64,000 bases of DNA from Plumapathes pennacea (Eukaryota; Cnidaria; Anthozoa; Antipatharia; Myriopathidae): the NCBI GenBank assembly GCA_964036295.1, contig OZ038467.1, positions 3,291,501 to 3,355,500 on the forward strand, written 5' to 3'. Of this stretch, positions 29,134-64,000 are shown one piece after another. The notes beneath the pieces are model-generated. The model did not search any database. It was not told the origin of the DNA and worked only from the letters and a program-made list of their open reading frames with translations. How positions within the stretch are numbered: position 1 is the stretch's first letter; each line of letters starts with the position of its first letter. The translations under genes were made by a program, and so were the position numbers.

Positions 29134-29293
29134 GTCGTTGCAAATCTCGGTGTGAGTGGTTTTCTGTGGCGACTCAACTCCAAATTCGCCGATGCTCCGG
29201 TGAAAACGTGGACTCGACAAGATAAGCAAACTTACACTCCTAACTCCAGGATGGCGATTATCCGCTCCGGACGTTTCACTCCGAACTTTTCAC

Positions 29294-29666
29294 TGTCGCG
29301 TTCCCAAGCTTACACTTCGCGGGGGAAAGTAAGACTCGGAGATCGAGAAGTGTCAACCATGTTTAATAAATACACGGTGAAAACTGAAACGGAAAGTAGG
29401 GCGATCTAAGTACTAAAGAATACAGAATGAAGCTCAGATCGCAGGACGGCTACTCACGTTCGGTTCCTGTACTGTGACTTGTAGAAAATTCTCCAGAAAA
29501 GATAACTGAAACGATCGACTAAATGCTACGAAAAACACGCTGACTTGGCACAAACAGAAAGGGGCGGGCTAGACAAGACCTCGTGGGAAACTGAGCCCGC
29601 GAACGTTTGGGCCAGAACCGGAACTGAACTAACTATGACTATAAATAAACAAGACAGTCTTCCACA
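29294..29666 (-). repeat. 5' LTR of the BEL/Pao element
   Basis: 373 bp, identical to 22375-22747 apart from one base. Followed by ATTTC. In element orientation this LTR holds the promoter. Confidence 0.93.
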
Positions 29667-32540: not shown

Positions 32541-32543
32541 CTT
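32533..32543 (-). promoter_or_regulatory. YY1-type site over the rhodanese start codon
   Basis: AAGATGGCGGC read on the minus strand, overlapping the ATG. This matches the YY1 consensus, often found at start codons of broadly expressed and bidirectional genes. It lies in the shared rhodanese/PCMT promoter. Confidence 0.5.
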
Positions 32544-32582
32544 GTTTTAGTGGTTCCCAGTCCTCCAGCTCCCCACACGAAG

Positions 32583-39600: not shown

Positions 39601-39986
39601 CCTTTCGTCGGCTCTTCTAAGATCGCTTCGATGCAGTCCACGGGTTCCGCGTCGCCATCGTCATCTTCCTCTTCGTCGTCTTCGTCGTCTCCTTCTTTTG
39701 GCCTTAATTTTCCATCACCTGCTTCGTCTTCGTCTTCATCGCCATCTTGATCACTGTCCGCCTCGTCCTCATCGCCCTCTTCTCCTTCGTAATCCTCGTC
39801 GTCTTCATCGTCTTCGCCTTCGTCGTTGTCCTTGTCCTCGTCATCGTCGCTGGCGCCTTCATCGTTCGCAGCCACTCGATCACGTGCTGCTATTGCGGCG
39901 CGCCGCTTGGCCCGAACTCCGTTTTCCACATCTTCTGGCTCCTCTTCGTCGTCCTCCTCGCTCGAGTGCTTGCGTTTTCGGGGCAT
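36670..39986 (-). CDS. Acidic nuclear-type protein of unknown family, three exons
   Basis: Minus-strand exons 39602-39986, 37654-37898 and 36670-36828 join with consistent phases (1, then 0) to 262 aa. Residues 1-128 are extremely acidic (runs of D and E broken by G and S) with basic patches PRKRK and RAKRR, suggesting nuclear localisation and binding to histones or other basic partners. From residue 129 the protein is globular: NSYYKDPQMINYLSCTPDTP, then ALQKLELCFAGEMRDTLEDI, KIPVLQVQKYDVIEESDEIY and NFYSIVKVDGVDKTWATQYF. I do not recognise this domain. The acceptor of exon 2 is the inner AG of a GCAGAG pair (37899, not 37901); only that choice keeps the frame. The start ATG at 39986 faces the small ORF at 40712. 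Confidence 0.75.
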
Positions 39987-40296
39987 TCTGTCCGCTTATG
40001 ATAGTAAAAAAGACCTTTCGATCAAAATGGAGGTCAAAGAACTAAGCAGAACAAAGGAACACGCAAGAGACGCCGCATCGGCGTCACATCCGCGCGAACC
40101 TGGAACCGGGAACAAGTGACGCGGAATGGACACAGGAACCCGGAGCGCCAAAGGCACTCTGTTTTCGGTCCAGACTACATGTTTTTTTGTTTTTGTTGTT
40201 TTTGCTTTTTTGTCGGCCAACAGTTACTTATGGTCAAACTAGCCTGCCTAGCTGGCAGTTTTAGAGAATGCGGGCAAAACTGACACGTTCCGCAAA

Positions 40297-40939: not shown

Positions 40940-41235
40940 TTCTTGCTTAAAGGTGAGCACACAGAGTTTTAATTAAGGCTCAATTAGTTAATAAAAATGA
41001 TGAAGGAGCAGGGGACTGCCTGGGGACCTCTTCCGGCACTGACTTTACTACAATTTCCTTGTTCGTCCATATAGTGTGGTTTATAAATGTGCACGTTGAT
41101 TTAAAATGTTACAGTGTGTCAATAACTTTTTGTAGTGGTGGGAAAATTTATATAGGGTTATCAGCAATACTCTTGAAGTGATCGATTTAAGGTGGGCAAT
41201 TATTGTTTGGGGGGCTGGGTGGGTGAGAACCTTAC

Positions 41236-41625
41236 ACAATAAAACAAAAAGAGGGAACCCTTATTCAAATAAAGCAAAGGGGTACCTTTACTCAAAACAA
41301 CTCAAAAAAACCAAAGGGGGACCCTTACTCAAAAAAAAACAAAGGGGGGATTTTTACTCAAAACAACTAAAGGGGGGACCCTTACTCGAAAAAGCCAAAG
41401 GGGGGACCCTTACTCAAAAAAACCAAAGGGGGGACTTTTAGATTGAAAAAATCCAGGGGGACCCTTACTCAAAACAACCAAAGGGGGGACCTTTACTCAA
41501 AAAAAACCTAAGGGGGGACCCTTACCAAAAAAATCCAAAGGAGGGACCCTTACTCAAAACAACCAAAGGTGGGACCCTTACTCAAAAATACCAGAGGGGG
41601 AACCCTTACTCAAAAAAAAAACCGC
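41236..41625. repeat. Minisatellite, about 30-bp unit, about 12 copies
   Basis: Degenerate copies of AAAGGGGGGACCCTTACTC followed by an A-rich stretch of about 8-12 bases. The GGGGGGACCC core recurs through the array with changes of one to three bases. The long ORF at 41178-41441 comes from the repeat. Confidence 0.85.
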
Positions 41626-41908
41626 ATCGTAGTAAAGTCTCTTTGCCTTGGAACGTAGCAGGTCACCACAGGCACTGGAGCATTGACAAGGACTACATGC
41701 GCCGCATCGCAGTAGAGTCCCCCTGCTTTGAAACATAGCACGTCACCACAGGCACTGGAACATTGCCGAGGACCACATGCGCCGCATCGCAGTAGCGTCC
41801 CCTGCCTTGATACATAGCACGTCACCACAAGCACTACCACATCGACGAGGACTACATGCGCAGCATCGCAGTAGAGTCCCTTTGCCTTGAAGCATAGCAC
41901 GTCACTAC
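41626..41908. repeat. Tandem repeat, about 80-bp unit, 3.5 copies
   Basis: CGCATCGCAGTAGAGTCCC starts at about 41626, 41703, 41783 and 41862. Each is followed by GCCTTGAAACATAGCACGTC and CACAGGCACTGGA..ATTG. The unit has no stop in one minus frame, giving a repetitive 96-codon ORF (41610-41900) that I do not regard as a gene. Confidence 0.85.
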
Positions 41909-42479
41909 AGAATTATTTCAACCATTTTTGCGGTGATTTTAGTTTCGAACGTGCAATCCACACAAGATTTCTGTGAAATACGCTTAGTGGCTGAATGATC
42001 AGTAGTGCAATACGTAATCACGCACACAGGCTGCCGTGCTTTGCCTAAGCTGCATGTTTTCTAGTTCGAAACGTAATTTCGCACATTAATGTTTGTCTCA
42101 TACGTTCCAGGGTCACTCTGAACTGCACGCCAAGACAATTCAAGTCAAGTCAAGTTCTTTATTCACACTTATTTGTATTTACAGCAAGATATTTGAAAAT
42201 AGTAGCTATAGATAAAATTAAGGAAGATGAAGAAGGAACAAATTACATTCATAAGAGAAAAAGTGCGTAGTGGGCAAAGGAGCAGAAGCTTTCGAGTTGT
42301 CCACTACCACAGTGAAATTACTGAGGGAGGAATACTTCATTGGAAGGAGGAAGGAGACTTGGAGCTATAACTAGTACTACGCCTTGAAAGAGTAGTCATT
42401 ACATACGCGGTATGTGGGCAAAGGAGTTGTTTCTGTACCAAGATCCGTTTGGAATACGCTCAATGAAGAGGTCAGAAGG
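41909..42479. other. Non-coding spacer before the satellite
   Basis: No gene seen. CAAGTCAAGTCAAGTTC at about 42141-42157 is a small microsatellite next to TTTATTCACACTTATTTG, a phrase that looks like the 3' end of a dispersed element. Confidence 0.4.
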
Positions 42480-42880
42480 AAACCTTCCCGGGACCGAAAC
42501 GAGAATTCTTGAAATTCATTTGCCTTATCTATCTTCAGCCGTTAACGAGATATAGAAAAAGACCACTTAATACTTTTGTAAAATTAGCTCCTTTGCTTGA
42601 AAAGTGCGATTAGCGTGTTAATCGATTATTTCCTTTTATTACTAGCGACCTTGGTGCATAAAATAGCACACACAGTATATCAAAACCTTTCCTATATTCC
42701 CAGGAACATTTCCTGAGAGTTTCATTCGATTCTAATATTTGGCCAAAAATTGTCAAATTTTCCAAAAATAGTAAGCCTATAGCCCATGCTTTTTGCCAAA
42801 AAATAGCCGATTTAGAGGAAAAATTTAAAGACTTGAAATTTTCTGGAAAACTTCCTGGGACTATAACGAGGCTATTTCCA
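42480..42880. repeat. Inverted, diverged satellite remnant at the array edge
   Basis: CATTTGCCTTATCTATCTTC at about 42518-42537 is the inverse of the monomer phrase GAAGATAGATAAGGCAAATG found throughout the main array. TTCCCAGGAACATTTCCTGA near 42700 is the inverse of the monomer's right arm. From about 42890 the satellite runs in the direct orientation. The edge therefore holds old monomer pieces in opposite orientation. Confidence 0.65.
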
Positions 42881-44532
42881 ATACATTGTCTTATAAAGCA
42901 AACATATTGGGGAAAGTCTTCTTATAGTTCCACGAAGGTTTCCTGAAAGTTTCAAGAGTTTTCAATTTTAAGCCAAAATCGGCAAAAAACCCTGGGCTAT
43001 TACCTTAGTATTTTGTCAAAAATCCGGTCATTTTTCGACCACCTCAGAATCGCATGAAACTTTCAGGAAATGTTCCTGGGACTATGCCGACGGCTTTTGC
43101 ATAGCTTTTGTAAACTTTGAGCCCGCGCGTCGTGAGAAATTACATCAAATCATCGACTAATTAAAACATCACACCTTTCAAAGTTTTAAGCGGTTTTGCT
43201 GCTATATCTCGCCAACGGATGAAGATACATAAAGCAAATGTATTGCAGAAAGTCTTCTTATAGTCCCAGGAAGGTTTCCTAAAAGTTTCAAGAGTTTTCA
43301 ATTTTTGGCCAAAATCTGCAAAAAAAAAACCCTGGCCTATAGCCTTAGTATTTTGTCAAAATCCGGTCATTTTTCGACCACCTCAGAATCGCATGAAACT
43401 TTCAGGAAATGTTCCTGGGACTATGCCGACGGCTTTTGCATAGTTTTTGTAAACTTTGAGCACGCGCGTCGTGAGAAATTGCATCAAATCATCGACTAAT
43501 TAAAACATCACACCTTTAAAAGTTTTAAGCGGTTTTGCTGCTATATCTCGCCAACAAATGTATTGCAGAAAGTCTTCTTATAGTCCTAGGAAGGTTTCCT
43601 AAAAGTTTCAAGAGTTTTCAATTTTTGGCCAAAATCTGCAAAAAAAACCCTGGCCTATAGCCTTAGTATTTTCTCAAAATCCGGTCATTTTTCGACCACC
43701 TCCGAATCGCATGAAACTTTCAGGAAATGTTCCTGGGACTATGCCGAAGGGTTTTGCGTAGTTTTTGTAAACTTTGAGCACGCGCGTCGCGAGAAATTGC
43801 ATGAAATCATCGACTAAGTAAAACATCACACCTTTCAAAGTTTTAAGCGGTTTTGCTGCTATATCTCGCCAACGGATGGAGATACATAAAGCAAATGTAT
43901 TGCAGAAAGTCTTCTTATAGTCCCAGGAAGGTTTCCTAAAAGTTTCAAGAGTTTTCAATTTTTGGCCAAAATTTGGAAAAAAAACCCTGGGCTATAGCCT
44001 TAGTATTTTGTCAAAGTCCGGTCATTTTTGAACCACCTCAGAATCGCATGAAACTTTCAGGAAATGTTCCTGGGACCATGCCGATGGCTTTTGCATGGTT
44101 TTTGTAAACTTTGAGCACGCGCGTCGTGAGAAATTACATCAAATCATCGACTAAGTAAAACATCACACCTTTCAAAGTTAAGCGGTTTTGCTGCTATATC
44201 TCGCCAACGGATGAAGACACATAAAGCAAATGTATTGCAGAAAGTCTTCTTATAGTCCCAGGAAGGTTTCCTAAAAGTTTCAAGAGTTTTCAATTTTTGG
44301 CCAAAATCTGCACAAAACCCTGGCCTATAGCCTTAGTATTTTGTCAAAATCCGCTCATTTTTCGACCATCTCAGAATCGCATGAAACTTTCAGGAAATGT
44401 TCCTGGGATTATACCGGCAAAGTTTGCATAGTTTTTGTATACTTTTAGCCCGCGCCTCGTGAGAAATTAGAGCAATTTCAAGCAAATCACGCACTAATTA
44501 ATTCATCACACCTTTCGGGGAAAGCAGCCAAG

Positions 44533-45925
44533 TTCAAGCTGCTATATCTCGCCAACGGATGAAGATAGATAAGGCAAATGTAATGCAAAAAGTCTTCTTA
44601 TAGTCCCAGGAAGGTTTCCTGAAAGTTTCAAGAGTTTTCAATTTTTGGCCAAAATCGGCAAAAAACCCTATGCTATAGCTTTAGTATTTTTTCAAAATTC
44701 CAACATTTTTCGACCACCTCAGAATTGCATGAAACTTTCAGGAGACGTTCCTGGGATTATGCCGACAAAGTTTGCATAGTTTTTGTAAACTTTTAGCCCG
44801 CGCGTCGTGAGAAACTAGAGCAATTTCAAGCAAATTACGCACTAATTAATTCATCACACCTTTCGGGGAATGGAGACAAGTTTAAGCTGCTATATCTCGC
44901 CAACGGATGAAGATAGATAAGGCAAATGTATTGCAAAACGTCTTCGTATAGTCCCAGGAAGGTTTCCTGAAAGTATCAAGAGTTTTCAATTTTTGGCCAA
45001 AATCGGCAAAAATCCCTGTGCTATAGCCTTAGTATTTTTTCAAAATTCCAACATTTTTCGACCACCTCAGAATCGCATGAAACTTTCAGGAGACGTTCCT
45101 GGGACTATGCAGACAAAGTTTGCATAGTTTTTGTAAACTTTTAGCCCGCGCATCGTGAGAAATTAGAGCAATTTCAAGCAAATCACGCACTAATTAATTC
45201 ATCACACCTTTCGGGGAAAGCAGCCAAGTTCAAGCTGCTATATCTCGCCAACGGATGAAGATAGATAAGGCAAATGTATTGCAAAAAGTCTTCTTATAGT
45301 CCCAGGAAGGTTTCCTGAAAGTTTCAGGAGTTTTCAATTTTTGGCCAAAATTGGCAAAAAACCCTATGCTATAGCTTTAGTATTTTTTCAAAATTCCAAC
45401 ATTTTTCGACCACCTCAGAATTGCATGAAACTTTCAGGAGACGTTCCTGGGATTATGCCGACAAAGTTTGCATAGTTTTTGTAAACTTTTAGCCCGCGCG
45501 TCGTGAGAAACTAGAGCAATTTCAAGCAAATTACGCACTAATTAATTCATCACACCTTTCGGGGAATGGAGACAAGTTTAAGCTGCTATATCTCGCCAAC
45601 GGATGAAGATAGATAAGGCAAATGTATTGCAAAACGTCTTCGTATAGTCCCAGGAAGGTTTCCTGAAAGTATCAAGAGTTTTCAATTTTTGGCCAAAATC
45701 GGCAAAAATCCCTGTGCTATAGCCTTAGTATTTTTTCAAAATTCCAACATTTTTCGACCACCTCAGAATCGCATGAAACTTTCAGGAGACGTTCCTGGGA
45801 CTATGCAGACAAAGTTTGCATAGTTTTTGTAAACTTTTAGCCCGCGCATCGCGGAGAAATTAGAGCAATTTCAAGCAAATCACGCACTAATTAATTCATC
45901 ACACCTTTTGGGGAAAGGAGACAAG
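44533..45925. repeat. Two-monomer higher-order repeat (696 bp)
   Basis: The variant AAGCAGCCAAGTTCAAGCTG occurs at 44523 and 45219, exactly 696 bp (2 x 348) apart. The alternating monomers share their private variants (CAGCCAAGTTCAAG against TGGAGACAAGTTTAAG). Two copies. Confidence 0.85.
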
Positions 45926-45929
45926 TTTA

Positions 45930-48900
45930 AGCTGCTATATCTCGCCAACGGATGAAGATAGATAAGGCAAATGTATTGCAAAACGTCTTCTTATAGTCCC
46001 AGGAAGGTTTCCTGAAAGTTTCAAGAGTTTTCAATTTTTGGCCAAAATCGGCAAAAATCCCTGTGCTATAGCCTTAGTGTTTCTTCAAAATTCCAACATT
46101 TTTCGACCATCTCAGAATCGCATGAAACTTTCAGGAGACATTCCTGGGATTATGCCGACAAAGTTTGCATAGTTTTTGTAAACTTTTAGCCCACGCCTCG
46201 TGAGAAATTAGAGCAATTTCAAGCAAATCACGCACTAATTAATTCATCACAACTTTCGAGAAAAGGAGACAAGTTTAAGCTGCTATATCTCGCCAACGGA
46301 TGAAGATAGATAAGGCAAATGTATTGCAAAACGTCTTCTTATAGTCCCAGGAAGGATTCCTGAAAGTTTCAGGAGTTTTCAATTTTTTACCAAAATCGGC
46401 AAAAATCCCTGTGCTATAGCCTTAGTATTTTTTCAAAAATCCAACATTTTTCGACCATCTCAGAATTGCATGAAACTTTCAGGAGACGTTCATGGGATTA
46501 TGCCGACAAAGTTTGCATAGTTTTTGTAAACTTTTAGCCCGCGCGTCGTGAGAAATTAGAGCAATTTCAAGCAAATCACGCACTAATTAATTCATCACAC
46601 CTTTCGGGGAAAGGAGACAACTTTAAGCTGCTATATCTCGCCAACGAATGAAGATAGATAAGGCAAATGTATTGCAAAACGTCTTCTTATAGTCCCAGGA
46701 AGGTTTCCTGAAAGTTTCAGGAGTTTTCAATTTTTGGCCAAAATTGGCAAAAATCCCTGTGCTATAGCCTTAGTATTTTTTCAAAATTCCAACATTTTTC
46801 GACCATCTGAGAATTGCATGAAACTTTCAGGAGACGTTCCTGGGATTATGCCGACAAAGTTTGCATAGTTTTTGTAAACTTTTAGCCCACAACTTTAAGC
46901 TGCTATATCTCGCCAACGGATGAAGATAGATAAGGCAAATGTATTGCAAAATGTCTTCGTATAGTCCCAGGAAGGTTTCCTGAAAGTTTCAGCAGTTTTC
47001 AATTTTTGGCCAAAATCGGCAAAAATCCCTGTGCTATAGCCCTAGTATTTTTTCAAAATTCGAACATTTTTCGACCACCTAAGAAATGCATGAATGTTTC
47101 AGGAAATGTTCCTTGGACTATACCGGCAAAGTTTGCATAGTTTTTGTAAACTTTTAGCCCGCGCGTCGTGAGAAATTAGAGCAATTTCAAGCAAATCACG
47201 CACTAATTAATTCATCACACCTTTCGAGAAAAGCAGCCAAGTTTAAGCTCCTATATTTCCCCAACGGATCAAGATAGATATCGCAAATTTATTGCAAAAA
47301 GTCTTCTTATAGTCCCAGGAAGGTTTCCTGAAAGTTTCAAGAGTTTTCAATTTTTGGCCAAAATCGGCAAAAAACCCTGTGCTATAGCCTTAGTATTTTT
47401 TCAAAATTCCAACATTTATCGACCATCTCAGAATCACATGAAACTTTCAGGAGACGTTCCTGGGACTATGCCGACAAAGTTTGCATAGTTTTTGTAAACT
47501 TTTAGCCCACAACTTTAAGCTGCTATATCTCGCAAACGGATGAAGATAGATAAGGCATATGTCTGGCAAAACGTCTTCGTATAGTCCCAGGAAGGTTTCC
47601 TGAAAGTTTCAAGAGTTTTCAATTTTTGGCCAAAATCGGCAAAAATCCCTGTGCTATAGCCCTAGTATTTTTTCAAAATTCCAACATTTTTCGACCACCT
47701 CAGAATCGCATAAAACTTTCAGGAGACGGTCCTGGGACTATGCAGACAAAGTTTGCATAGTTTTTGTAAACTTTTAGCCCGCGCGTCGTGAGAAATTAGA
47801 GCAATTTCAAGCAAATCACGCACTAATTAATTCATCACACCTTTTGGGGAAAGGAGACAAGTTTAAGCTGCTATATCTCGCCAACGGATGAAGATAGATA
47901 AGGCAAATGTATTGCAAAACGTCTTCTTATAGTCCCAGGAAGGTTTCCTGAAAGTTTCAAGAGTTTTCAATTTTTGGCCAAAATCGGCAAAAATCCCTGT
48001 GCTATAGCCTTAGTGTTTCTTCAAAATTCCAACATTTTTCGACCATCTGAGAATCGCATGAAACTTTCAGGAGACATTCCTGGGATTATGCCGACAAAGT
48101 TTGCATAGTTTTTGTAAACTTTTAGCCCACGCCTCGTGAGAAATTAGAACAATTTCAAGCAAATCACGCACTAATTAATTCATCACAACTTTCGAGGAAA
48201 GGAGACAAGTTTAAGCTGCTATATCTCGCCAACGGATGAAGATAGATAAGGCAAATGTATTGCAAAACGTCTTCTTATAGTCCCAGGAAGGATTCCTGAA
48301 AGTTTCAGGAGTTTTCAATTTTTTACCAAAATCGGCAAAAATCCCTGTGCTATAGCCTTAGTATTTTTTCAAAATTCCAACATTTTTCGACCATCTCAGA
48401 ATTGCATGAAACTTTCAGGAGACGTTCATGGGATTATGCCGACAAAGTTTGCATAGTTTTTGTAAACTTTTAGCCCGCGCGTCGTGAGAAATTAGAGCAA
48501 TTTCAAGCAAATCACGCACTAATTAATTCATCACACCTTTTGGGGAAAGGAGACAACTTTAAGCTGCTATATCTCGCCAACGAATGAAGATAGATAAGGC
48601 AAATGTATTGCAAAACGTCTTCTTATAGTCCCAGGAAGGTTTCCTGAAAGTTTCAGGAGTTTTCAATTTTTGGCCAAAATTGGCAAAAATCCCTGTGCTA
48701 TAGCCTTAGTATTTTTTCAAAATTCCAACATTTTTCGACCATCTGAGAATTGCATGAAACTTTCAGGAGACGTTCCTGGGATTATGCCGACAAAGTTTGC
48801 ATAGTTTTTGTAAACTTTTAGCCCACAACTTTAAGCTGCTATATCTCGCCAACGGATGAAGATAGATAAGGCAAATGTATTGCAAAATGTCTTCGTATAG

Positions 48901-49810
48901 TCCCAGGAAGGTTTCCTGAAAGTTTCAGCAGTTTTCAATTTTTGGCCAAAATCGGCAAAAATCCCTGTGCTATAGCCCTAGTATTTTTTCAAAATTCGAA
49001 CATTTTTCGACCACCTAAGAAATGCATGAATGTTTCAGGAAATGTTCCTTGGACTATACCGGCAAAGTTTGCATAGTTTTTGTAAACTTTTAGCCCGCGC
49101 GTCGTGAGAAATTAGAGCAATTTCAAGCAAATCACGCACTAATTAATTCATCACACCTTTCGAGAAAAGCAGCCAAGTTTAAGCTCCTATATTTCCCCAA
49201 CGGATCAAGATAGATATCGCAAATTTATTGCAAAAAGTCTTCTTATAGTCCCAGGAAGGTTTCCTGAAAGTTTCAAGAGTTTTCAATTTTTGGCCAAAAT
49301 CGGCAAAAAACCCTGTGCTATAGCCTTAGTATTTTTTCAAAATTCCAACATTTATCGACCATCTCAGAATCACATGAAACTTTCAGGAGACGTTCCTGGG
49401 ACTATGCCGACAAAGTTTGCATAGTTTTTGTAAACTTTTAGCCCACAACTTTAAGCTGCTATATCTCGCAAACGGATGAAGATAGATAAGGCATATGTCT
49501 GGCAAAACGTCTTCGTATAGTCCCAGGAAGGTTTCCTGAAAGTTTCAAGAGTTTTCAATTTTTGGCCAAAATCGGCAAAAATCCCTGTGCTATAGCCCTA
49601 GTATTTTTTCAAAATTCCAACATTTTTCGACCACCTCAGAATCGCATAAAACTTTCAGGAGACGTTCCTGGGACTATGCAGACAAAGTTTGCATAGTTTT
49701 TGTAAACTTTTAGCCCGCGCGTCGTGAGAAATTAGAGCAATTTCAAGCAAATCACGCACTAATTAATTCATCACACCTTTTGGGGAAAGGAGACAAGTTT
49801 AAGCTGCTAT
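45930..49810. repeat. Six-monomer higher-order repeat (1936 bp), two tandem copies
   Basis: The private variant GGCATATGTCTGGCAAAACG is at 47554 and 49490, 1936 bp apart. TTAGTGTTTCTTCAAAATTC, CCTATATTTCCCCAACGGAT and the 272-bp short monomers repeat at the same spacing. 4 x 348 + 2 x 272 = 1936, so each block has four full and two short monomers. Confidence 0.85.
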
Positions 49811-50119
49811 ATCTCGCCAACGGATGAAGATAGATAAGGCAAATGTATTGCAAAACGTCTTCTTATAGTCCCAGGAAGGTTTCCTGAAAGTTTCAGGAGT
49901 TTTCAATTTTTGGCCAAAATCGGCAAAAAACCCTGTGCTATAGCCTTAGTATTTTTTCAAAATTCCAACATTTTTCGACCATCTGAGAATCGCATGAAAC
50001 TTTCAGGAGACATTCCTGGGATTATGCCGACAAAGTTTGCATAGTTTTTGTAAACTTTTAGCCCACGCCTCGTGAGAAATTAGAGAAATTTCAAGCAAAT
50101 CACGCACTAATTAATTCAT

Positions 50120-52210
50120 CACACCTTTTGGGGAAAGGAGATAAGTTTAAGCTGCTATATCTCGCCAACGGATGAAGATAGATAAGGCAAATGTATTGCA
50201 AAACGTCTTCTTATAGTCCCGGGAAGATTTCCTGAAAGTTTCAAGAGTTTTCAATTCTTGGCCAAAATCAGCAAAAAACCCTGTGCTATAGCCTTAGTAT
50301 TTTTTCAAAATTCCAACATTTTTCGACCATCTCAGAATAGCATGAAACTTTCAGGAGACGTTCCTGGGACTATGCCGACAAAGTTTGCATAGTTTTTGTA
50401 AACTTTTAGCCCGCGCGTCGTGAGAAATTAGAGCAATTTCAAGCAAATAACGCACTAATTAATTCATCACACCTTTCGAGGAAAGGAGACAAGTTTAAGC
50501 TGCTATATCTCGCCAACGGATGAAGATAGATAAGGCAAATCTATTGCAAAACGTCTTCTTATAGTCCCAGGAAGGTTTCCTGAAAGTTTCAGGAGTTTTC
50601 AATTTTTGGCCAAAATCGGCAAAAATCCCTGTGCTATAGCCTTAGTATTTTTTCAAAATTCCAACATTTTTCGACCACCTCAGAATCGCATTAAACTTTC
50701 AGGAGACGTTCCTGGGACTATGCAGACAAAGTTTGCATAGTTTTTGTAAACTTTTAGCCCGCGCGTCGTGAGAAATTAGAGCAATTTCAAGCAAATCACG
50801 CACTAATTAATTCATCACACCTTTTGGGGAAAGGAGACAAGTTTAAGCTGCTATATCTCGCCAACGGATGAAGATAGATAAGGCAAATGTATTGCAAAAC
50901 GTCTTCTTATAGTCCCAGGAAGATTTCTTGAAAGTTTCAGGAGTTTTCAATTTTTGGCCAAAATCGGCAAAAAACCCTGTGCTATAGCCTTAGTATTTTT
51001 TCAAAATTCCAACATTTTTCGACCATCTGAGAATCGCATGAAACTTTCAGGAGACATTCCTGGGATTATGCCGACAAAGTTTGCATAGTTTTTGTAAACT
51101 TTTAGCCCACGCCTCGTGAGAAATTAGAGAAATTTCAAGCAAATCACGCACTAATTAATTCATCACACCTTTTGGGGAAAGGAGATAAGTTTAAGCTGCT
51201 ATATCTCGCCAACGGATGAAGATAGATAAGGCAAATGTATTGCAAAACGTCTTCTTATAGTCCCGGGAAGATTTCCTGAAAGTTTCAAGAGTTTTCAATT
51301 CTTGGCCAAAATCAGCAAAAAACCCTGTGCTATAGCCTTAGTATTTTTTCAAAATTCCAACATTTTTCGACCATCTCAGAATAGCATGAAACTTTCAGGA
51401 GACGTTCCTGGGACTATGCCGACAAAGTTTGCATAATTTTTGTAAACTTTTAGCCCGCGCGTCGTGAGAAATTAGAGCAATTTCAAGCAAATAACGCACT
51501 AATTAATTCATCACACCTTTCGAGGAAAGGAGACAAGTTTAAGCTGCTATATCTCGCCAACGGATGAAGATAGATAAGGCAAATCTATTGCAAAACGTCT
51601 TCTTATAGTCCCAGGAAGGTTTCCTGAAAGTTTCAGGAGTTTTCAATTTTTGGCCAAAATCGGCAAAAATCCCTGTGCTATAGCCTTAGTATTTTTTCAA
51701 AATTCCAACATTTTTCGACCACCTCAGAATCGCATTAAACTTTCAGGAGACGTTCCTGGGACTATGCAGACAAAGTTTGCATAGTTTTTGTAAACTTTTA
51801 GCCCGCGCGTCGTGAGAAATTAGAGCAATTTCAAGCAAATCACGCACTAATTAATTCATCACACCTTTTGGGGAAAGGAGACAAGTTTAAGCTGCTATAT
51901 CTCGCCAACGGATGAAGATAGATAAGGCAAATGTATTGCAAAACGTCTTCTTATGGTCCCGGGAAGGTTTCCTGAAAGTTTCAAGAGTTTTCAATTTTTG
52001 GCCAAAATCAGCAAAAAACCCTGTGCTATAGCCTTAGTATTTTTTCAAAATTCCAACATTTTTCGACCACCTCAGAATCACATGAAACTTTCAGGAGACG
52101 TTCATGGGACTATGCCGACAAAGTTTGCATAGTTTTTGTAAACTTTTAGCCCACAACTTTAAGCTGCTATATCTCGCAAACGGATGAAGATAGATAAGGC
52201 ATATGTCTGG
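50120..52210. repeat. Three-monomer higher-order repeat (1044 bp)
   Basis: GGAGATAAGTTTAAG occurs at about 50138 and 51182, 1044 bp (3 x 348) apart, with the flanking variants (TCCCGGGAAGATTTC, TTCTTGGCCAAAATCAGC, AAATCTATTGC) at matching positions. Confidence 0.8.
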
Positions 52211-55200
52211 CAAAACGTCTTCGTATAGTCCCAGGAAGGTTTCCTGAAAGTTTCAAGAGTTTTCAATTTTTGGCCAAAATCGGCAAAAATCCCTGTGCTA
52301 TAGCCCTAGTATTTTTTCAAAATTCCAACATTTTTCGACCACCTCAGAATCGCATAAAACTTTCAGGAGACGTTCCTGGGACTATGCAGACAAAGTTTGT
52401 ATAGTTTTTGTAAACTTTTAGCCCGCGCGTCGTGAGAAATTAGAGCAATTTCAAGCAAATCACGCACTAATTAATTCATCACACCTTTTGGGGAAAGGAG
52501 ACAAGTTTAAGCTGCTATATCTCGCCAACGGATGAAGATAGATAAGGCAAATGTATTGCAAAACGTCTTCTTATAGTCCCAGGAAGGTTTCCTGAAAGTT
52601 TCAGGAGTTTTCAATTTTTGGCCAAAATCGGCAAAAAACCCTGTGCTATAGCCTTAGTGTTTCTTCAAAATTCCAACATTTTTCGACCACCTCAGAATCG
52701 CATTAAACTTTCAAGAGACGTTCCTGGGACTATGCAGACAAAGTTTGCATAGTTTTTGTAAACTTTTAGCCCGCGCGTCGTGAGAAATTAGAGCAATTTC
52801 AAGCAAGTCACGCACTAATTAATTCATCACACCTTTTGGGGAAAGGAGACAAGTTTAAGCTGCTATATCTCGCCAACGGATGAAGATAGATAAGGCAAAT
52901 GTATTGCAAAACGTCTTCTTATGGTCCCGGGAAGGTTTCCTGAAAGTTTCAAGAGTTTTCAATTTTTGGCCAAAATCAGCAAAAAACCCTGTGCTATAGC
53001 CTTAGTATTTTTTCAAAATTCCAACATTTTTCGACCACCTCAGAATCGCATGAAACTTTCAGGAGACGTTCCTGGGACTATGCCGACAAAGTTTGCATAG
53101 TTTTTGTAAACTTTTAGCCCACGCCTCGTGAGAAATTAGAGCAATTTCAAGCAAATCACGCACTAATTAATTCATCACACCTTTCGAGGAAAGGAGACAA
53201 GTTTAAGCTGCTATATCTCGCCAACGGATGAAGATAGATAAGGCAAATGTATTGCAAAACGTCTTCTTATAGTCCCAGGAAGGTTTCCTGAAAGTTTCAG
53301 GAGTTTTCAATTTTTGGCCAAAATCGGCAAAAATCCCTGTGCTATAGCCTTAGTATTTTTTCAAATTTCCAACATTTTTCGACCACCTCAGAATCGCATG
53401 AAACTTTCAGGAGACGTTCCTGGGACTATGCAGACAAAGTTTGCATAGTTTTTGTAAACTTTTAGCCCGCGCGTCGTGAGAAATTAGAGCAATTTCAAGC
53501 AAATCACGCACTAATTAATTCATCACACCTTTTGGGGAAAGGAGACAAGTTTAAGCTGCTAAATCTCGCCAACGGATGAAGATAGTTAAGGCAAATGTAT
53601 TGCAAAACGTCTTCTTATAGTCCCGGGAAGGATTCCTGAAAGTTTCAAGAGTTTTCAATTTTTGGCCAAAATCAGCAAAAAACCCTGTGCTATAGCCTTA
53701 GTGTTTTTTCAAAATTCCAACATTTTTCGACCATCTCAGAATCGCATGAAACTTTCAGGAGACGTTCCTGGGACTATGCCGACAAAGTTTGCATAGTTTT
53801 TGTAAACTTTTAGCCCGCGCCTCGTGAGAAATTAGAGCAATTTCAAGCAAATCACGCACTAATTAATTCATCACACCTTTCGGGGAAAGGAGACAAGTTT
53901 AAGCTGCTATATCTCGCCAACGGATGAAGATAGATAAGGCAAATGTATTTCAAAAAGTCTTCTTATAGTCCCAGGAAGGTTTCCTGAAAGTTTCAGGAGT
54001 TTTCAATTTTTGGCCAAAATCGGCAAAAATCCCTGTGCTATAGCCTTAGTATTTTTTCAAAATTCCAACATTTTTCGACCACCTCAGAATCGCATGAAAC
54101 TTTCAGGAGACGTTCCGGGGACTATGCAGACAAAGTTTGCATAGTTTTTGTAAACTTTTAGCCCGCGCGTCGTGAGAAACTAGAGCAATTTCAAGCAAAT
54201 CACGCACTAATTAATTCATCACACCTTTTGGGGAAAGGAGACAAGTTTAAGCTGCTATATCTCGCCAACGGATGAAGATAGATAAGGCAAATGTATTGCA
54301 AAACGTCTTCTTATAGTCCCGGGAAGGTTTCTTGAAAGTTTCAAGAGTTTTCAATTTTTGGCCAAAATCAGCAAAAAACCCTGTGCTATAGCCTTAGTAT
54401 TTTTTCAGAATTCCAACATTTTTCGACCACCTCAGAATCACATGAAACTTTCAGGAGACGTTCCTGGGATTATGCCGACAAAGTTTGCATAGTTTTTGTA
54501 AACTTTTAGCCAACGCCTCGTGAGAAATTAGAGCAATTTCAAGCAAATCACGCACTAATTAATTCATCACACCTTTCGAGGAAAGGAGACAAGTTTAAGC
54601 TGCTATATCTCGCCAACGGATGAAGATAGATAAGGCAAATGTATTTCAAAAAGTCTTCTTATAGTCCCAGGAAGGTTTCCTGAAAGTTTCAGGAGTTTTC
54701 AATTTTTGGCCAAAATCGGCAAAAATCCCTGTGCTATAGCCTTAGTATTTTTTCAAAATTCCAACATTTTTCGACCACCTCAGAATCGCATGAAACTTTC
54801 AGGAGACGTTCCGGGGACTATGCAGACAAAGTTTGCATAGTTTTTGTAAACTTTTAGCCCGCGCGTCGTGAGAAACTAGAACAATTTCAAGCAAATCACG
54901 CACTAATTAATTCATCACACCTTTTGGGGAAAGGAGACAAGTTTAAGCTGCTATATCTCGCCAACGGATGAAGATAGATAAGGCAAATGTATTGCAAAAC
55001 GTCTTCTTATAGTCCCAGGAAGGTTTCCTGAAAGTTTCAAGAGTTTTCAATTTTTGGCCAAAATCAGCAAAAAACCCTGTGCTATAGCCTTAGTATTTTT
55101 TCAGAATTCCAACATTTTTCGACCACCTCAGAATCACATGAAACTTTCAGGAGACGTTCCTGGGATTATGCAGACAAAGTTTGCATAGTTTTTGTAAACT

Positions 55201-56699
55201 TTTAGCCAACGCCTCGTGAGAAATTAGAGCAATTTCAAGCAAATCACGCACTAATTAATTCATCACACCTTTCGAGGAAAGGAGACAAGTTTAAGCTGCT
55301 ATATCTCGCCAACGGATGAAGATAGATAAGGCAAATGTATTGCAAAACGTCTTCTTATAGTCCCAGGACGGTTTCCTGAAAGTTTCAGGAGTTTTCAATA
55401 TTTGGTCAAAATCGGCAAAAATCCCTGTGCTATAGCCTTAGTATTTTTTCAAAATGCCAACATTTTTAGACCATCTCAGAATCGCATGAAACTTTCAGGA
55501 GACGTTCCTGGGACTATGCCGACAAAGTTTGCATAGTTTTTGTAAACTTTTAGCCCGCGCCTCGTGAGAAATTAGAGCAATTTCAAGCAAATCACGCACT
55601 AATTAATTCATCACACCTTTCGAGGAAAGGAGACAAGTTTAAGCTGCTATATCTCGCCAACGGATGAAGATAGATAAGGCAAATGTATTTCAAAAAGTCT
55701 TCTTATAGTCCTAGGAAGGTTTCCTGAAAGTTTCAGGAGTTTTCAATTTTTGGCCAAAATCGGCAAAAATCCCTGTGCTATAGCCTTAGTATTTTTTCAA
55801 AATTCCAACATTTTTCGACCACCTCAGAATCGCATGAAACTTTCAGGAGACGTTCCTGGGACTATGCAGACAAAGTTTGCATAGTTTTTGTAAACTTTTA
55901 GCCCGCGCGTCGTGAGAAACTAGAGCAATTTCAAGCAAATCACGCACTAATTATATCATCACACCTTTTGGGGAAAGGAGACAAGTTTAAGCTGCTATAT
56001 CTCGCCAACGGATGAAGATAGATAAGGCAAATGTATTGCAAAACGTCTTCTTATAGTCCCGGGAAGGATTCCTGAAAGTTTCAGGAGTTTTCAATTTTTG
56101 GCCAAAATCAGCAAAAAACCCTGTGTTATAGCCTTAGTATTTTTTCAGAATTCCAACATTTTTCGACCACCTCAGAATCACATGAAACTTTCAGGAGACG
56201 TTCCTGGGATTATGCCGACAAAGTTTGCATAGTTTTTGTAAACTTTTAGCCAACGCCTCGTGAGAAATTAGAGCAATTTCAAGCAAATCACGCATTAATT
56301 AATTCATCACACCTTTCGAGGAAAGGAGACAAGTTTAAGCTGCTATATCTCGCCAACGGATGAAGATAGATAAGGCAAATGTATTTCAAAAAGTCTTCTT
56401 ATAGTCCCAGGAAGGTTTCCTGAAAGTTTCAGGAGTTTTCAATTTTTGGCCAAAATCGGCAAAAATCCCTGTGCTATAGCCTTAGTATTTTTTCAAAATT
56501 CCAACATTTTTCGACCACCTCAGAATCGCATGAAACTTTCAGGAGACGTTCCTGGGACTATGCAGACAAAGTTTGCATAGTTTTTGTAAACTTTTAGCCC
56601 GCGCGTCGTGAGAAACTAGAACAATTTCAAGCAAATCACGCACTAATTAATTCATCACACCTTTTGGGGAAAGGAGACAAGTTTAAGCTGCTATATCTC

Positions 56700-59600
56700 G
56701 CCAACGGATGAAGATAGATAAGGCAAATGTATTGCAAAACGTCTTCTTATAGTCCCAGGAAGGTTTCCTGAAAGTTTCAAGAGTTTTCAATTTTTGGCCA
56801 AAATCAGCAAAAAACCCTGTGCTATAGCCTTAGTATTTTTTCAGAATTCCAACATTTTTCGACAACCTCAGAATCACATGAAACTTTCAGGAGACGTTCC
56901 TGGGATTATGCCGACAAAGTTTGCATAGTTTTTGTAAACTTTTAGCCAACGCCTCGTGAGAAATTAGAGCAATTTCAAGCAAATCACGCACTAATTAATT
57001 CATCACACCTTTCGAGGAAAGGAGACAAGTTTAAGCTGCTATATCTCGCCAACGGATGAAGATAGATAAGGCAAATGTATTTCAAAAAGTCTTCTTATAG
57101 TCCCAGGAAGGTTTCCTGAAAGTTTCAGGAGTTTTCAATTTTTGGCCAAAATCGGCAAAAATCCCTGTGCTATAGCCTTAGTATTTTTTCAAAATTCCAA
57201 CATTTTTCGACCACCTCAGAATCGCATGAAACTTTCAGGAGACGTTCCTGGGACTATGCAGACAAAGTTTGCATAGTTTTTGTAAACTTTTAGCCCGCGC
57301 GTCGTGAGAAACTAGAACAATTTCAAGCAAATCACGCACTAATTAATTCATCACACCTTTTGGGGAAAGGAGACAAGTTTAAGCTGCTATATCTCGCCAA
57401 CGGATGAAGATAGATAAGGCAAATGTATTGCAAAACGTCTTCTTATAGTCCCAGGAAGGTTTCCTGAAAGTTTCAAGAGTTTTCAATTTTTGGCCAAAAT
57501 CAGCAAAAAACCCTGTGCTATAGCCTTAGTATTTTTTCAGAATTCCAACATTTTTCGACCACCTCAGAATCACATGAAACTTTCAGGAGACGTTCCTGGG
57601 ATTATACCGGCAAAGTTTGCATAGTTTTTGTAAACTTTTAGCCCGCACGTCGTGAGAAATTAGAGCAATTTCAAGCAAATTACGCACTAATTAATTCACC
57701 ACACCTTTCGGGGAAAGGAGCCAAGTTTAAGCTGCTATATCTCGCCAACGGATGAAGATAGATAAGGCAAATGTATTGCAAAAAGTCTTCTTATAGTCCC
57801 AGAAAGGTTTCCTGAAGGTTTCAAGAGTTTTCAATTTTTGGCCAAAATCGGCAAAAAACCCTGGCCTATAGCGTTAGTATTTTTTCAAAATGCCAACATT
57901 TTTCGACCACCTCAGAATCGCATGAAACTTTCAGGAGACGTTCCTGGGACTATGCAGACAAAGTTTGCATAGTTTTTGTAAACTTTTAGCCCGCGCGTCG
58001 TGAGAAATTAGAGCAATTTCAAGCAAATCACGCACTAATTAATTCATCACACCTTTCGAGGAAACAGACAAGTTTAAGCTCCTATATCTCGCCAACGGAT
58101 GAAGATAGATAAGGCAAATGTATTGCAAAACGTCTTCTTATAGTCCCAGGAAGGTTTCCTGAAAGTTTCAGGAGTTTTCAATTTTTTACCAAAATCGGCA
58201 AAAATCCCTGTGCTATAGCCTTAGTATTTTTTCAAAATTCCAACATTTTTCCACCATCTCAGAATCACATGAAACTTCCAGGAGACGTTCCTGGGATTAT
58301 GCCGACAAAGTTTGCATAGTTTTTGTAAACTTTTAGCCCGCGCCTCGTGAGAAATTAGAGCAATTTCAAGCAAATCACGCACTAATTAATTCATCACACC
58401 TTTTGGGGAAAGGAGACAAGTTTAAGCTGCTATATCTCGCCAACGGATGAAGATAGATAAGGCAAATGTATTGCAAAACGTCTTCTTATAGTCCCAGGAA
58501 GGTTTCCTGAAAGTTTCAGGAGTTTTCAATTTTTTACCAAAATCGGCAAAAATCCCTGTGCTATAGCCTTAGTATTTTTTCAAAATTCCAACATTTCTCG
58601 ACCATCTCAGAATCACATGAAACTTTCAGGAGACGTTCCTGGGACTATGCAGACAAAGTTTGCATAGTTTTTTTAAACTTTTAGCCCGCGCGTCGTGAGA
58701 AATTAGAGCAATTTCAAGCAAATCACGCACTAATTAATTCATCACACCTTTCGAGGAAACAGACAAGTTTAAGCTCCTATATCTCGCCAACGGATGAAGA
58801 TAGATAAGGCAAATGTATTGCAAAACGTCTTCTTATAGTCCCAGGAAGGTTTCCTGAAAGTTTCAGGAGTTTTCAATATTTGGTCAAAATCGGCAAAAAT
58901 CCCTGTGCTATAGCCTTAGTATTTTTTCAAAATTCCAACAATTTTCGACCACCTCAGAATCGCATGAAACTTTCAGGAGACGTTCCTGGGACTATGCAGA
59001 CAAAGTTTGCGTAGTTTTTGTAAAATTTTAGCCCGCGCCTCGTGAGAAATTAGATCAATTTCAAGCAAATCACGCACTAATTAATTCATCACACCTTTTG
59101 GGGAAAGGAGACAAGTTTAAGCTGCTATATCTCGCCAACGGATGAAGATAGATAAGGCAAATGTATTGCAAAACGTCTTCTTATAGTCCCGGGAAGGATT
59201 CCTGAAAGTTTCAAGAGTTTTCAATTTTTGGCCAAAATCAGCAAAAAAAACCCTGTGCTATAGCCTTAGTATTTTTTCAAAATTCCAACATTTTTCGACC
59301 ACCTCAGAATCGCATGAAACTTTCAGGAGACGTTCCTGGGACTATGCAGACAAAGTTTGCATAGTTTTTGTAAACTTTTAGCCCGCGCCTCGTGAGAAAT
59401 TAGAGCAATTTCAAGCAAATCACGCATTAATTAATTCATCACACCTTTTGGGGAAAGGAGACAAGTTTAAGCTGCTATATCTCGCCAACGGATGAAGATA
59501 GATAAGGCAAATGTATTGCAAAACGTCTTCTTATAGTCCCAGGAAGGTTTCCTGAAAGTTTCAGGAGTTTTCAATTTTTTACCAAAATCGGCAAAAATCC

Positions 59601-62600
59601 CTGTGCTATAGCCTTAGTATTTTTTCAAAATTCCAACATTTCTCGACCATCTCAGAATCACATGAAACTTTCAGGAGACGTTCCTGGGATTATGCCGACA
59701 AAGTTTGCATAGTTTTTGTAAACTTTTAGCCCGCGCCTCGTGAGAAATTAGAGCAATTTCAAGCAAATAACGCACTAATTAATTCATCACACCTTTCGAG
59801 GAAAGGAGACAAGTTTAAGCTGCTATATCTCGCCAACGGATGAAGATAGATAAGGCAAATGTATTGCAAAACGTCTTCTTATAGTCCCAGGAAGGTTTCC
59901 TGAAAGTTTCAGGAGTTTTCAATATTTGGTCAAAATCGGCAAAAATCCCTGTGCTATAGCCTTAGTATTTTTTCAAAATTCCAACATTTTTCGACCACCT
60001 CAGAATCGCATGAAACTTTCAGGAGACGTTCCTGGGACTATGCAGACAAAGTTTGCATAGTTTTTGTAAACTTTTAGCCCGCGCGTCGTGAGAAATTAGA
60101 GCAATTTCAAGCATATCACGCACTAATTAATTCATCACACCTTTCGAGGAAAGGAGACAAGTTTAAGCTGCTATATCTCGCCAACGGATGAAGATAGATA
60201 AGGCAAATGTATTGCAAAACGTCTTCTTATAGTCCCAGGAAGGTTTCCTGAAAGTTTCAGGAGTTTTCAATATTTGGTCAAAATCGGCAAAAATCCCTGT
60301 GCTATAGCCTTAGTATTTTTTCAAAATTCCAACATTTTTCGACCACCTCAGAATCGCATGAAACTTTCAGGAGACGTTCCTGGGACTATGCAGACAAAGT
60401 TTGCATAGTTTTTGTAAACTTTTAGCCCGCGCCTCGTGAAAAATTAGAGCAATTTCAAGCATATCACGCACTAATTAATTCATCACACCTTTCGAGGAAA
60501 GGAGACAAGTTTAAGCTGCTATATCTCGCCAACGGATGAAGATAGATAAGGCAAATGTATTGCAAAACGTCTTCTTATAATCCGAGGAAGGTTTCCTGAA
60601 AGTTTCAGGAGTTTTCAATATTTGGTCAAAATCGGCAAAAATCCCTGTGCTATAGCCTTAGTATTTTTTCAAAATTCCAACATTTTTCGACCACCTCAGA
60701 ATCGCATGAAACTTTCAGGAGACGTTCCGGGGACTATGCAGACAAAGTTTGCATAGTTTTTGTAAACTTTTAGCCCGCGCGTCGTGAGAAATTAGAGCAA
60801 TTTCAAGCAAATCACGCACTAATTAATTCATCACACCTTTCGAGGAAAGGAGACAAGTTTAAGCTGCTATATCTCGCCAACGGATGAAGATAGATAAGGC
60901 AAATGTATTGCAAAACGTCTTCTTATAGTCCCAGGAAGGTTTCCTGAAAGTTTCAGGAGTTTTCAATTTTTTACCAAAATCGGCAAAAATCCCTGTGCTA
61001 TAGCCTTAGTATTTTTTCAAAATTCCAACATTTTTCCACCATCTCAGAATCACATGAAACTTCCAGGAGACGTTCCTGGGATTATGCCGACAAAGTTTGC
61101 ATAGTTTTTGTAAACTTTTAGCCCGCGCCTCGTGAGAAATTAGAGCAATTTCAAGCAAATCACGCACTAATTAATTCATCACACCTTTTGGGGAAAGGAG
61201 ACAAGTTTAAGCTGCTATATCTCGCCAACGGATGAAGATAGATAAGGCAAATGTATTGCAAAACGTCTTCTTATAGTCCCAGGAAGGTTTCCTGAAAGTT
61301 TCAAGAGTTTTCAATTTTTGGCCAAAATCAGCAAAAAACCCTGTGCTATAGCCTTAGTATTTTTTCAGAATTCCAACATTTTTCGACAACCTCAGAATCA
61401 CATGAAACTTTCAGGAGACGTTCCTGGGATTATGCCGACAAAGTTTGCATAGTTTTTGTAAACTTTTAGCCAACGCCTCGTGAGAAATTAGAGCAATTTC
61501 AAGCAAATCACGCACTAATTAATTCATCACACCTTTCGAGGAAAGGAGACAAGTTTAAGCTGCTATATCTCGCCAACGGATGAAGATAGATAAGGCAAAT
61601 GTATTTCAAAAAGTCTTCTTATAGTCCCAGGAAGGTTTCCTGAAAGTTTCAGGAGTTTTCAATTTTTGGCCAAAATCGGCAAAAATCCCTGTGCTATAGC
61701 CTTAGTATTTTTTCAAAATTCCAACATTTTTCGACCACCTCAGAATCGCATGAAACTTTCAGGAGACGTTCCTGGGACTATGCAGACAAAGTTTGCATAG
61801 TTTTTGTAAACTTTTAGCCCGCGCGTCGTGAGAAACTAGAACAATTTCAAGCAAATCACGCACTAATTAATTCATCACACCTTTTGGGGAAAGGAGACAA
61901 GTTTAAGCTGCTATATCTCGCCAACGGATGAAGATAGATAAGGCAAATGTATTGCAAAACGTCTTCTTATAGTCCCAGGAAGGTTTCCTGAAAGTTTCAA
62001 GAGTTTTCAATTTTTGGCCAAAATCAGCAAAAAACCCTGTGCTATAGCCTTAGTATTTTTTCAGAATTCCAACATTTTTCGACCACCTCAGAATCACATG
62101 AAACTTTCAGGAGACGTTCCTGGGATTATACCGGCAAAGTTTGCATAGTTTTTGTAAACTTTTAGCCCGCACGTCGTGAGAAATTAGAGCAATTTCAAGC
62201 AAATTACGCACTAATTAATTCACCACACCTTTCGGGGAAAGGAGCCAAGTTTAAGCTGCTATATCTCGCCAACGGATGAAGATAGATAAGGCAAATGTAT
62301 TGCAAAAAGTCTTCTTATAGTCCCAGAAAAGTTTCCTGAAGGTTTCAAGAGTTTTCAATTTTTGGCCAAAATCGGCAAAAAACCCTGGCCTATAGCGTTA
62401 GTATTTTTTCAAAATGCCAACATTTTTCGACCACCTCAGAATCGCATGAAACTTTCAGGAGACGTTCCTGGGACTATGCAGACAAAGTTTGCATAGTTTT
62501 TGTAAACTTTTAGCCCGCGCGTCGTGAGAAATTAGAGCAATTTCAAGCAAATCACGCACTAATTAATTCATCACACCTTTCGAGGAAACAGACAAGTTTA

Positions 62601-64000
62601 AGCTCCTATATCTCGCCAACGGATGAAGATAGATAAGGCAAATGTATTGCAAAACGTCTTCTTATAGTCCCAGGAAGGTTTCCTGAAAGTTTCAGGAGTT
62701 TTCAATTTTTTACCAAAATCGGCAAAAATCCCTGTGCTATAGCATTAGTATTTTTTCAAAATTCCAACATTTTTCCACCATCTCAGAATCACATGAAACT
62801 TCCAGGAGACGTTCCTGGGATTATGCCGACAAAGTTTGCATAGTTTTTGTAAACTTTTAGCCCGCGCCTCGTGAGAAATTAGAGCAATTTCAAGCAAATC
62901 ACGCATTAATTAATTCATCACACCTTTTGGGGAAAGGAGACAAGTTTAAGCTGCTATATCTCGCCAACGGATGAAGATAGATAAGGCAAATGTATTGCAA
63001 AACGTCTTCTTATAGTCCCAGGAAGGTTTCCTGAAAGTTTCAGGAGTTTTCAATTTTTTACCAAAATCGGCAAAAATCCCTGTGCTATAGCCTTAGTATT
63101 TTTTCAAAATTCTAACATTTCTCGACCATCTCAGAATCACATGAAACTTTCAGGAGACGTTCCTGGGACTATGCAGACAAAGTTTGCATAGTTTTTTTAA
63201 ACTTTTAGCCCGCGCGTCGTGAGAAATTAGAGCAATTTCAAGCAAATCACGCACTAATTAATTCATCACACCTTTCGAGGAAACAGACAAGTTTAAGCTC
63301 CTATATCTCGCCAACGGATGAAGATAGATAAGGCAAATGTATTGCAAAACGTCTTCTTATAGTCCCAGGAAGGTTTCCTGAAAGTTTCAGGAGTTTTCAA
63401 TATTTGGTCAAAATCGGCAAAAATCCCTGTGCTATAGCCTTAGTATTTTTTCAAAATTCCAACAATTTTCGACCACCTCAGAATCGCATGAAACTTTCAG
63501 GAGACGTTCCTGGGACTATGCAGACAAAGTTTGCGTAGTTTTTGTAAAATTTTAGCCCGCGCCTCGTGAGAAATTAGATCAATTTCAAGCAAATCACGCA
63601 CTAATTAATTCATCACACCTTTTGGGGAAAGGAGACAAGTTTAAGCTGCTATATCTCGCCAACGGATGAAGATAGATAAGGCAAATGTATTGCAAAACGT
63701 CTTCTTATAGTCCCGGGAAGGATTCCTGAAAGTTTCAAGAGTTTTCAATTTTTGGCCAAAATCAGCAAAAAAAACCCTGTGCTATAGCCTTAGTATTTTT
63801 TCAAAATTCCAACATTTTTCGACCACCTCAGAATCGCATGAAACTTTCAGGAGACGTTCCTGGGACTATGCAGACAAAGTTTGCATAGTTTTTGTAAACT
63901 TTTAGCCCGCGCCTCGTGAGAAATTAGAGCAATTTCAAGCAAATCACGCATTAATTAATTCATCACACCTTTTGGGGAAAGGAGACAAGTTTAAGCTGCT
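56700..64000. repeat. Thirteen-monomer higher-order repeat (4524 bp), second copy cut by the window edge
   Basis: The rare variants all recur at a distance of 4524 bp (13 x 348): GACAACCTCAG at 56861 and 61385, ATTATACCGGCAAAG at 57601 and 62125, CGAGGAAACAGACAAG at 58057 and 62581 and again at 58752 and 63276. In regions I compared they match almost base for base. The match fails before about 61200 (TAGAGCAATTT against TAGAACAATTT 4524 bp earlier), which places the junction there. Confidence 0.85.

What the first reader, a model, noticed from the sequence alone, without database searches (positions are those of the whole stretch)
42881..64000. A 348-bp satellite with several coexisting tiers of higher-order repeat
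Read directly: a basic 348-bp period, a 272-bp deletion variant, and four nested block sizes (2, 3, 6 and 13 monomers) in separate parts of one array. The left edge is most diverged and the right most uniform, so amplification has moved in one direction, with the largest and freshest block at the right. Known centromeric satellites (for example alpha satellite) show this layout, but usually one dominant block per array. Coral and anemone centromeres are little described. Inference: this is a centromeric or pericentromeric candidate.
Basis: partly seen in the sequence, partly recalled or inferred. Interest (0 to 1): 0.85.

Follow-up and report, generated by a model that had tools for sequence, protein, structure and literature searches.

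The report
Ordinary layered 348-bp satellite array edge
The right end of this stretch is the edge of a long array of 348-letter DNA repeats, apparently from an animal genome, that grew by repeated copying of blocks of many sizes; it could belong to a centromere region, but nothing here shows that.

Summary
The array is real: 62 forward units from about 42893 to the window end (the last one cut), five of them 272 bp with one shared 76-bp deletion. Block duplications of 2, 3, 6 and 13 units exist, but so do 1, 5 and 7; 22 near-identical segments at 18 lags. The '13-mer' is one full block plus 8.2 units. No left-to-right freshness gradient is significant within the core. Every unit carries a 31-bp inverted repeat. 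Association between variant sites decays within a unit, so short-tract exchange also operates. Simulated random-size block duplication gives as many coexisting lags at similar identity, so coexisting 'tiers' need no special cause. No CENP-B box lies in the array. The host genome is not held, so abundance, position and centromere function remain untested. A new member of a known kind.

The parts
42477..42892 (-). Diverged, inverted unit (about 1.2 monomers) at the array's left end, head-to-head with the forward array
   Evidence: nhmmer minus-strand hits 42892-42588 (E 1.6e-24) and 42556-42477 (E 1.1e-11), against a weaker plus-strand hit 42675-42869 (E 3.2e-11) that the unit's internal palindrome explains; local score 175-186 inverted against 69 forward; 77-80% identity over ungapped columns to nine forward stretches tried
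42893..44251 (+). Older subfamily layer: a partial forward start (42893-42923) and units m02-m05 (320-337 bp)
   Evidence: 0.844 mean identity to m07-m63 but 0.951 among themselves; clade support 100/100 in a tree whose bootstrap had not settled
44252..44599 (+). Unit m06: recombinant, older-subfamily left part and core right part, switch between 44398 and 44419
   Evidence: 58 subfamily-diagnostic columns: left 15 columns 12 older, 2 core, 1 neither; right 43 columns 40 core, 2 older, 1 neither
44600..64000 (+). Core array, units m07-m63, running off the window
   Evidence: mean pairwise identity 0.954
44457..45851 (+). 2-unit block duplication (lag 696, 699 bp, 3 differences)
45854..50084 (+). 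6-unit block duplication (lag 1936 = 4x348 + 2x272; 2295 bp, 10 differences)
49549..51954 (+). 3-unit block duplication (lag 1044; 1362 bp, 5 differences)
53729..57605 (+). Overlapping 2-, 5- and 7-unit block duplications (lags 696, 1740, 2436)
59770..60927 (+). 1-unit duplication (lag 348; 810 bp, 8 differences)
56622..64000 (+). 13-unit block: full copy 56622-61145, partial second copy 61146-64000 (2855 bp, 4 differences)
46689..46960 (+). 272-bp unit m13 (others: 47309-47580, 48625-48896, 49245-49516, 51953-52224), same 76-bp deletion
56749..56909 (+). Example of the 31-bp inverted-repeat arms of a unit (arm A 56749-56779, arm B 56879-56909, 99 bp between)

Best explanation
This is the left edge of an ordinary, non-coding satellite DNA array. 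It grows and turns over by in-register homologous exchange of blocks of variable size (unequal sister-chromatid exchange or repair between misaligned copies, inferred), plus short-tract exchange between units (shown as association decay). New material expanded inside older material: an inverted relic and an older subfamily were left at the edge (order shown, direction in time inferred). The coexisting block sizes are footprints of successive random-size duplications, not separate programmed tiers. Whether the array is centromeric or pericentromeric is open; I put that at about 0.35.
For: Lags are sums of 348 and 272, apart from shifts of one base where units are 347 or 349-350 bp long, so exchanges were in register. 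The older subfamily is a clade and m06 is a recombinant with one main switch. Association between variant sites falls from r2 0.163 (under 20 bp) to 0.029 (120-180 bp) and four-gamete pairs rise from 0.21 to 0.74; 0 of 1000 site permutations as strong; 27 of 57 core units used after dropping near-duplicates, 23 sites. The same 76-bp deletion sits in units only 0.952 alike (m13 and m15), which show no mismatch in the 67 retained positions around it; at their overall 13 of 272 differences about 3 would be expected there, so this is modest support. Simulation (8 runs per setting): geometric block size of mean 8 at mutation rate 3e-5 gave 24-78 segments and 14-43 lags; its five runs at identity 0.948-0.965 gave 24-42 segments and 14-25 lags, against 22 segments and 18 lags observed at core identity 0.954. 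Mean 4 at 2.5e-5, five runs at 0.947-0.962: 28-68 segments, 9-30 lags. Single-unit duplication at 1.5e-5 (identity 0.938-0.958) gave 2-6 lags. No ORF of 110 aa or more lies in the array (33 listed in the window, the last starting at 40544; frames running off the window end were not listed).
Against: All ten matched runs at mean 4 and 8 gave more segments than the observed 22. Other models are not excluded: mean 2 at 2e-5 gave 5-15 lags in six runs at 0.939-0.956; single-unit duplication at the lower mutation rate gave 10 and 11 lags in two runs at identity 0.964; a fixed 6-unit model gave 3 and 6 lags at 0.945-0.946 but 11 and 20 at 0.961-0.964. The simulations scanned only multiples of 348 in 57 units, the real data all lags over 42400-64000, and few parameter values were tried. 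Only 21 kb is seen and the right end is missing. Assembly error cannot be tested without reads.
Confidence: 0.85

Rival explanations
1. The array is a functional centromeric (CENP-A-bearing) or pericentromeric satellite, its intra-unit dyad symmetry and inverted edge aiding centromere chromatin.
For: Higher-order blocks, layered edge, 348 bp = 2 x 174 bp (about two nucleosomes, recalled); a B arm at the expected place in 63 of 63 units cut at A arms; single-strand DNA fold of one unit z -3.05 with 0 of 100 shuffles as stable. Dyad symmetries and inverted satellite subarrays are discussed as possible centromere features in Tribolium (abstract and passages of PMC13081366). A passage of PMC12355185 says genomic-DNA hybridisation signals of repeats lie mainly in centromeric regions in Acropora.
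Against: No CENP-B-box match in the array: the 5 one-mismatch matches in the window lie between 7462 and 39916, with 7.4 expected by chance. The arms are not significantly more conserved than the rest (22 of 348 circular shifts as low). No abundance or position data.
Confidence: 0.35
2. A local, non-centromeric array (subtelomeric, or one of many scattered arrays) of a repeat derived from a foldback element.
For: Two unrelated minisatellites lie just left of the array (41230-41620, 41622-41910); recognised genes lie in the same window, the nearest Pfam match at 32478-33098, about 9.4 kb from the array; the unit consensus is an imperfect palindrome over about 160 bp (self-reverse score 54 against mean 22.7, sd 4.2, largest 42, of 300 shuffles).
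Against: No other copy found in bases 1-42476 (nhmmer, E up to 10), so no dispersed element is seen here. Target-site duplications and a transposase were not searched for specifically.
Confidence: 0.45
3. Part of the block structure, above all the 13-unit copy, is an assembly artefact such as two haplotypes joined end to end.
For: The 13-unit copies differ at only 4 of 2855 bases; no reads available.
Against: Several overlapping duplications of different sizes and divergence (0.14-0.99% in the nine measured); no N in the window.
Confidence: 0.12

Closest known systems
CEN178 satellite arrays of Arabidopsis thaliana (TRASH, PMC10199239, passages read)
   Same: Very many pairs of like multi-unit blocks in one kind of array (count from the passages; the variety of block sizes is recalled)
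   Different: Unit 348 bp, not 178; sequences were not compared; location unknown here; only 62 units seen
Human alpha satellite higher-order arrays (recalled)
   Same: Older, diverged layers at the edge of a homogeneous core
   Different: No dominant higher-order block seen; no CENP-B box; 348-bp unit
Tribolium madens TmSat1/TmSat2 with macro-dyad symmetry (PMC13081366, abstract and passages read)
   Same: Inverted repeats within units and a change of unit orientation; one side of the junction is degenerate (10.7% or 23.5% there, 20-23% here)
   Different: Here only about 1.2 relic units are inverted, not kilobases; arms 31 bp, not about 300 bp as in TmSat2; no second satellite seen
Coral FISH repeats near single centromeres: FP-9X (357 bp, Favites pentagona, PMC9005458) and MA-13C (Micromussa amakusensis, PMC12355185), passages read
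   Same: Centromere-linked repeats in stony corals, FP-9X of similar length
   Different: Their sequences were not seen here, so no comparison was made; FP-9X is reported as similar to the 5' untranslated region of an Orbicella mRNA

Membership tests
Satellite DNA (long tandem array) | Many head-to-tail copies of one non-coding unit | tested here: met
   62 forward units; no listed ORF of 110 aa or more in the array
Satellite with higher-order repeats | Multi-unit blocks more alike than their neighbouring units | tested here: met
   Nine blocks measured are 99.0-99.9% identical while neighbouring core units are mostly 93-97% (range 0.879-0.994)
Alpha-satellite-like array with one dominant block | One block size repeated many times | tested here: not met
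   18 lag values in 22 segments; the most frequent lag, 696, occurs in 4 places. Tested on 21 kb only
Centromeric satellite | CENP-A chromatin | not testable with these tools
   No chromatin data
Centromeric satellite | One major site per chromosome, high abundance | not testable with these tools
   Host genome not held
CENP-B-dependent satellite | CENP-B box (motif recalled) | tested here: not met
   None of the 5 matches with up to one mismatch in the window lies in the array
Foldback or miniature inverted-repeat transposon | Terminal inverted repeats with target-site duplication, dispersed copies | tested here: inconclusive
   Internal inverted repeats present; no dispersed copy in bases 1-42476; target-site duplication not tested

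The most novel reading that the evidence does not exclude
A centromeric or pericentromeric satellite of a non-bilaterian animal whose 348-bp, two-nucleosome-sized unit carries a dyad-symmetric 31-bp inverted repeat and whose array edge preserves a head-to-head inversion, so that dyad symmetry, not a CENP-B box, marks the site.
Probability: 0.15. Interest if true: 0.65.

Novelty: new member of a known kind. Interest (0 to 1): 0.3.

Why it matters
I found no print of the sequence: six 18-20-base stretches gave 0 papers in the main texts searched; supplements were not searched. Satellites of coral or anemone centromeres were scarce in the listings I saw (some searches showed only 25 of 36, 20 of 348 and 12 of 582 papers). 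If the repeat proved to be the major centromeric satellite it would give a probe for the chromosomes of its host. The behaviour of the array is what block exchange predicts and is not surprising.

Tried and rejected
Directional amplification: no significant trend in four rank tests, three on m07-m63 and one on m06-m63. Arms kept by selection: arm diversity 0.060 against 0.087 elsewhere in 33 of 63 units (near-duplicates dropped), but 22 of 348 circular shifts are as low, so not claimed. Gene conversion between the two arms of a unit: not seen; in the 33 units the arms keep 2-6 differences, mostly at the same arm-specific places. CENP-B box: none in the array. Coding repeat (348 is divisible by 3): no long frame listed in the array. 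Known RNA families at gathering threshold, and tRNA genes: 0 in the window. Relatives: the arm pattern gave 0 in viral contigs and 0 in prokaryote genomes, a second pattern 0 in viral contigs; neither collection is meant to hold animal DNA, so this says little. The first simulation run used mutation rates that were too high (mean identity 0.40-0.61) and was dropped; one search is used. Papers: searches; passages read of PMC12355185, PMC9005458, PMC8167085, PMC13081366 and PMC10199239; all others seen only as listings with the start of the abstract.

Full report
What is there. Tandem Repeats Finder gives a 348-bp period over 43555-52152 and 52153-64000. I cut the region into 63 units at the A-arm motif, allowing 8 mismatches of 31. 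The first (42694-42923) is mostly the inverted relic read forward, so 62 units are forward; the last is cut by the window end. Five units are 272 bp long and share exactly one 76-bp deletion. There is no N in the window.

Block structure. A scan of lags from 100 up over 42400-64000 found 22 near-identical segments at 18 lag values (17 if 1739 is pooled with 1740). The main ones are 696 (4 places), 1044, 1740, 1936, 2436, 2708, 348 and 4524; several longer lags are sums of these. The 13-unit block is one full copy and 2855 bp of the next, with 4 differences. It is the least diverged of nine measured, but not significantly so against the 6-unit block (p 0.058) or the 3-unit block (p 0.16).

Layers rather than a clear gradient. 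Units m02-m05 form a clade (100/100, bootstrap not settled, m01 left out). They are 0.844 identical on average to m07-m63 and 0.951 among themselves. Unit m06 has 12 older, 2 core and 1 other allele at 15 diagnostic columns up to 44398, and 40 core, 2 older and 1 other at 43 columns from 44419 on. From m07 to m63, Spearman rho with position is 0.06 (neighbour identity, p 0.65), 0.19 (best partner, p 0.17) and 0.05 (identity to consensus, p 0.71); with m06 included, neighbour identity gives 0.11, p 0.43. The window end also hides the right edge.

Inverted edge. Its inverted alignment scores 175-186 against 69 forward. It is 77-80% identical over ungapped columns to each of nine forward stretches tried, so it is not specially close to its neighbour, and it probably predates the split of the two forward subfamilies (inference). 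Both orientations meet at about the same place in the unit (positions 42-44 of the consensus), but the local 20-bp palindrome score at the junction was only 12 of 20, equalled at one other of the places scanned, so a recent fold-back is not shown.

Inside the unit. Each unit has two 31-bp arms, 93.5% complementary in the consensus, 99 bp apart. Since units were cut at arm A, the independent count is arm B: one in each of 63 of 63 units, 130 bp downstream in most and 130-140 in all. One unit folds as single-stranded DNA with z -3.05 (0 of 100 shuffles as stable), and the consensus against its own reverse complement scores 54 (300 shuffles: mean 22.7, largest 42). The arms are not significantly more conserved than the rest, so I do not claim a bound site.

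Mechanism. Lags built from whole units show in-register exchange. Variant sites lose association within tens of bases (r2 0.163 under 20 bp, 0.029 at 120-180 bp; 0 of 1000 permutations; 27 of 57 core units, 23 sites), so short tracts are exchanged too. The 76-bp deletion in unlike backgrounds is a modestly supported case. In simulations with 8 runs per setting, random-size block duplication at identity near the observed 0.954 gave 9-30 lags (mean 4 units) and 14-25 (mean 8), against 18 observed, though with more segments (24-68) than the 22 observed. Single-unit duplication gave 2-6 lags at identity 0.938-0.958 but 10 and 11 in two runs at 0.964; a fixed 6-unit block gave 3 and 6 lags at 0.945-0.946 but 11 and 20 at 0.961-0.964. 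These two are disfavoured, not excluded.

What it is not shown to be. Centromere function rests on analogy. The own genome is not held; no CENP-B box lies in the array; no eukaryotic collection was available. Coral cytogenetics papers describe centromere-linked FISH repeats (passages), but their sequences could not be compared. The nearest recognised gene match is about 9.4 kb left of the array; six further frames, two of them between 39059 and 40939 and one at 39597-39995, gave no match above a curated cut-off.

Verdict.

Noticed in passing
22374-29666: BEL/Pao LTR retrotransposon with one unbroken 2166-aa frame on the minus strand and long terminal repeats of about 374 bp (344 bp identical, one difference seen in the rest): a recent insertion.
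   Followed up: partly
41230-41910: Two unrelated minisatellites (28-bp and 80-bp units) lie back to back just left of the satellite array.
   Followed up: no
9361-10350 and 12280-13251: Two neighbouring single-frame rhodopsin-family receptor genes on the minus strand, about 2.9 kb apart and alike, so a tandem duplication.
   Followed up: no
15028-16666: Two frames that match the two halves of the SNO (PdxT-type) glutamine amidotransferase family, probably exons of one vitamin B6 synthesis gene, unusual for animals (recalled).
   Followed up: no
18565-19296 and 31645-32305: Two pieces (159 nt at 75%, 117 nt at 84%) duplicated about 13 kb apart; the right copy overlaps a frame with a weak rhodanese-like match below the curated cut-off.
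   Followed up: partly
21804-22312: A 166-bp unit in three tandem copies, with a related inverted stretch at 20224-20270, next to the retrotransposon.
   Followed up: no
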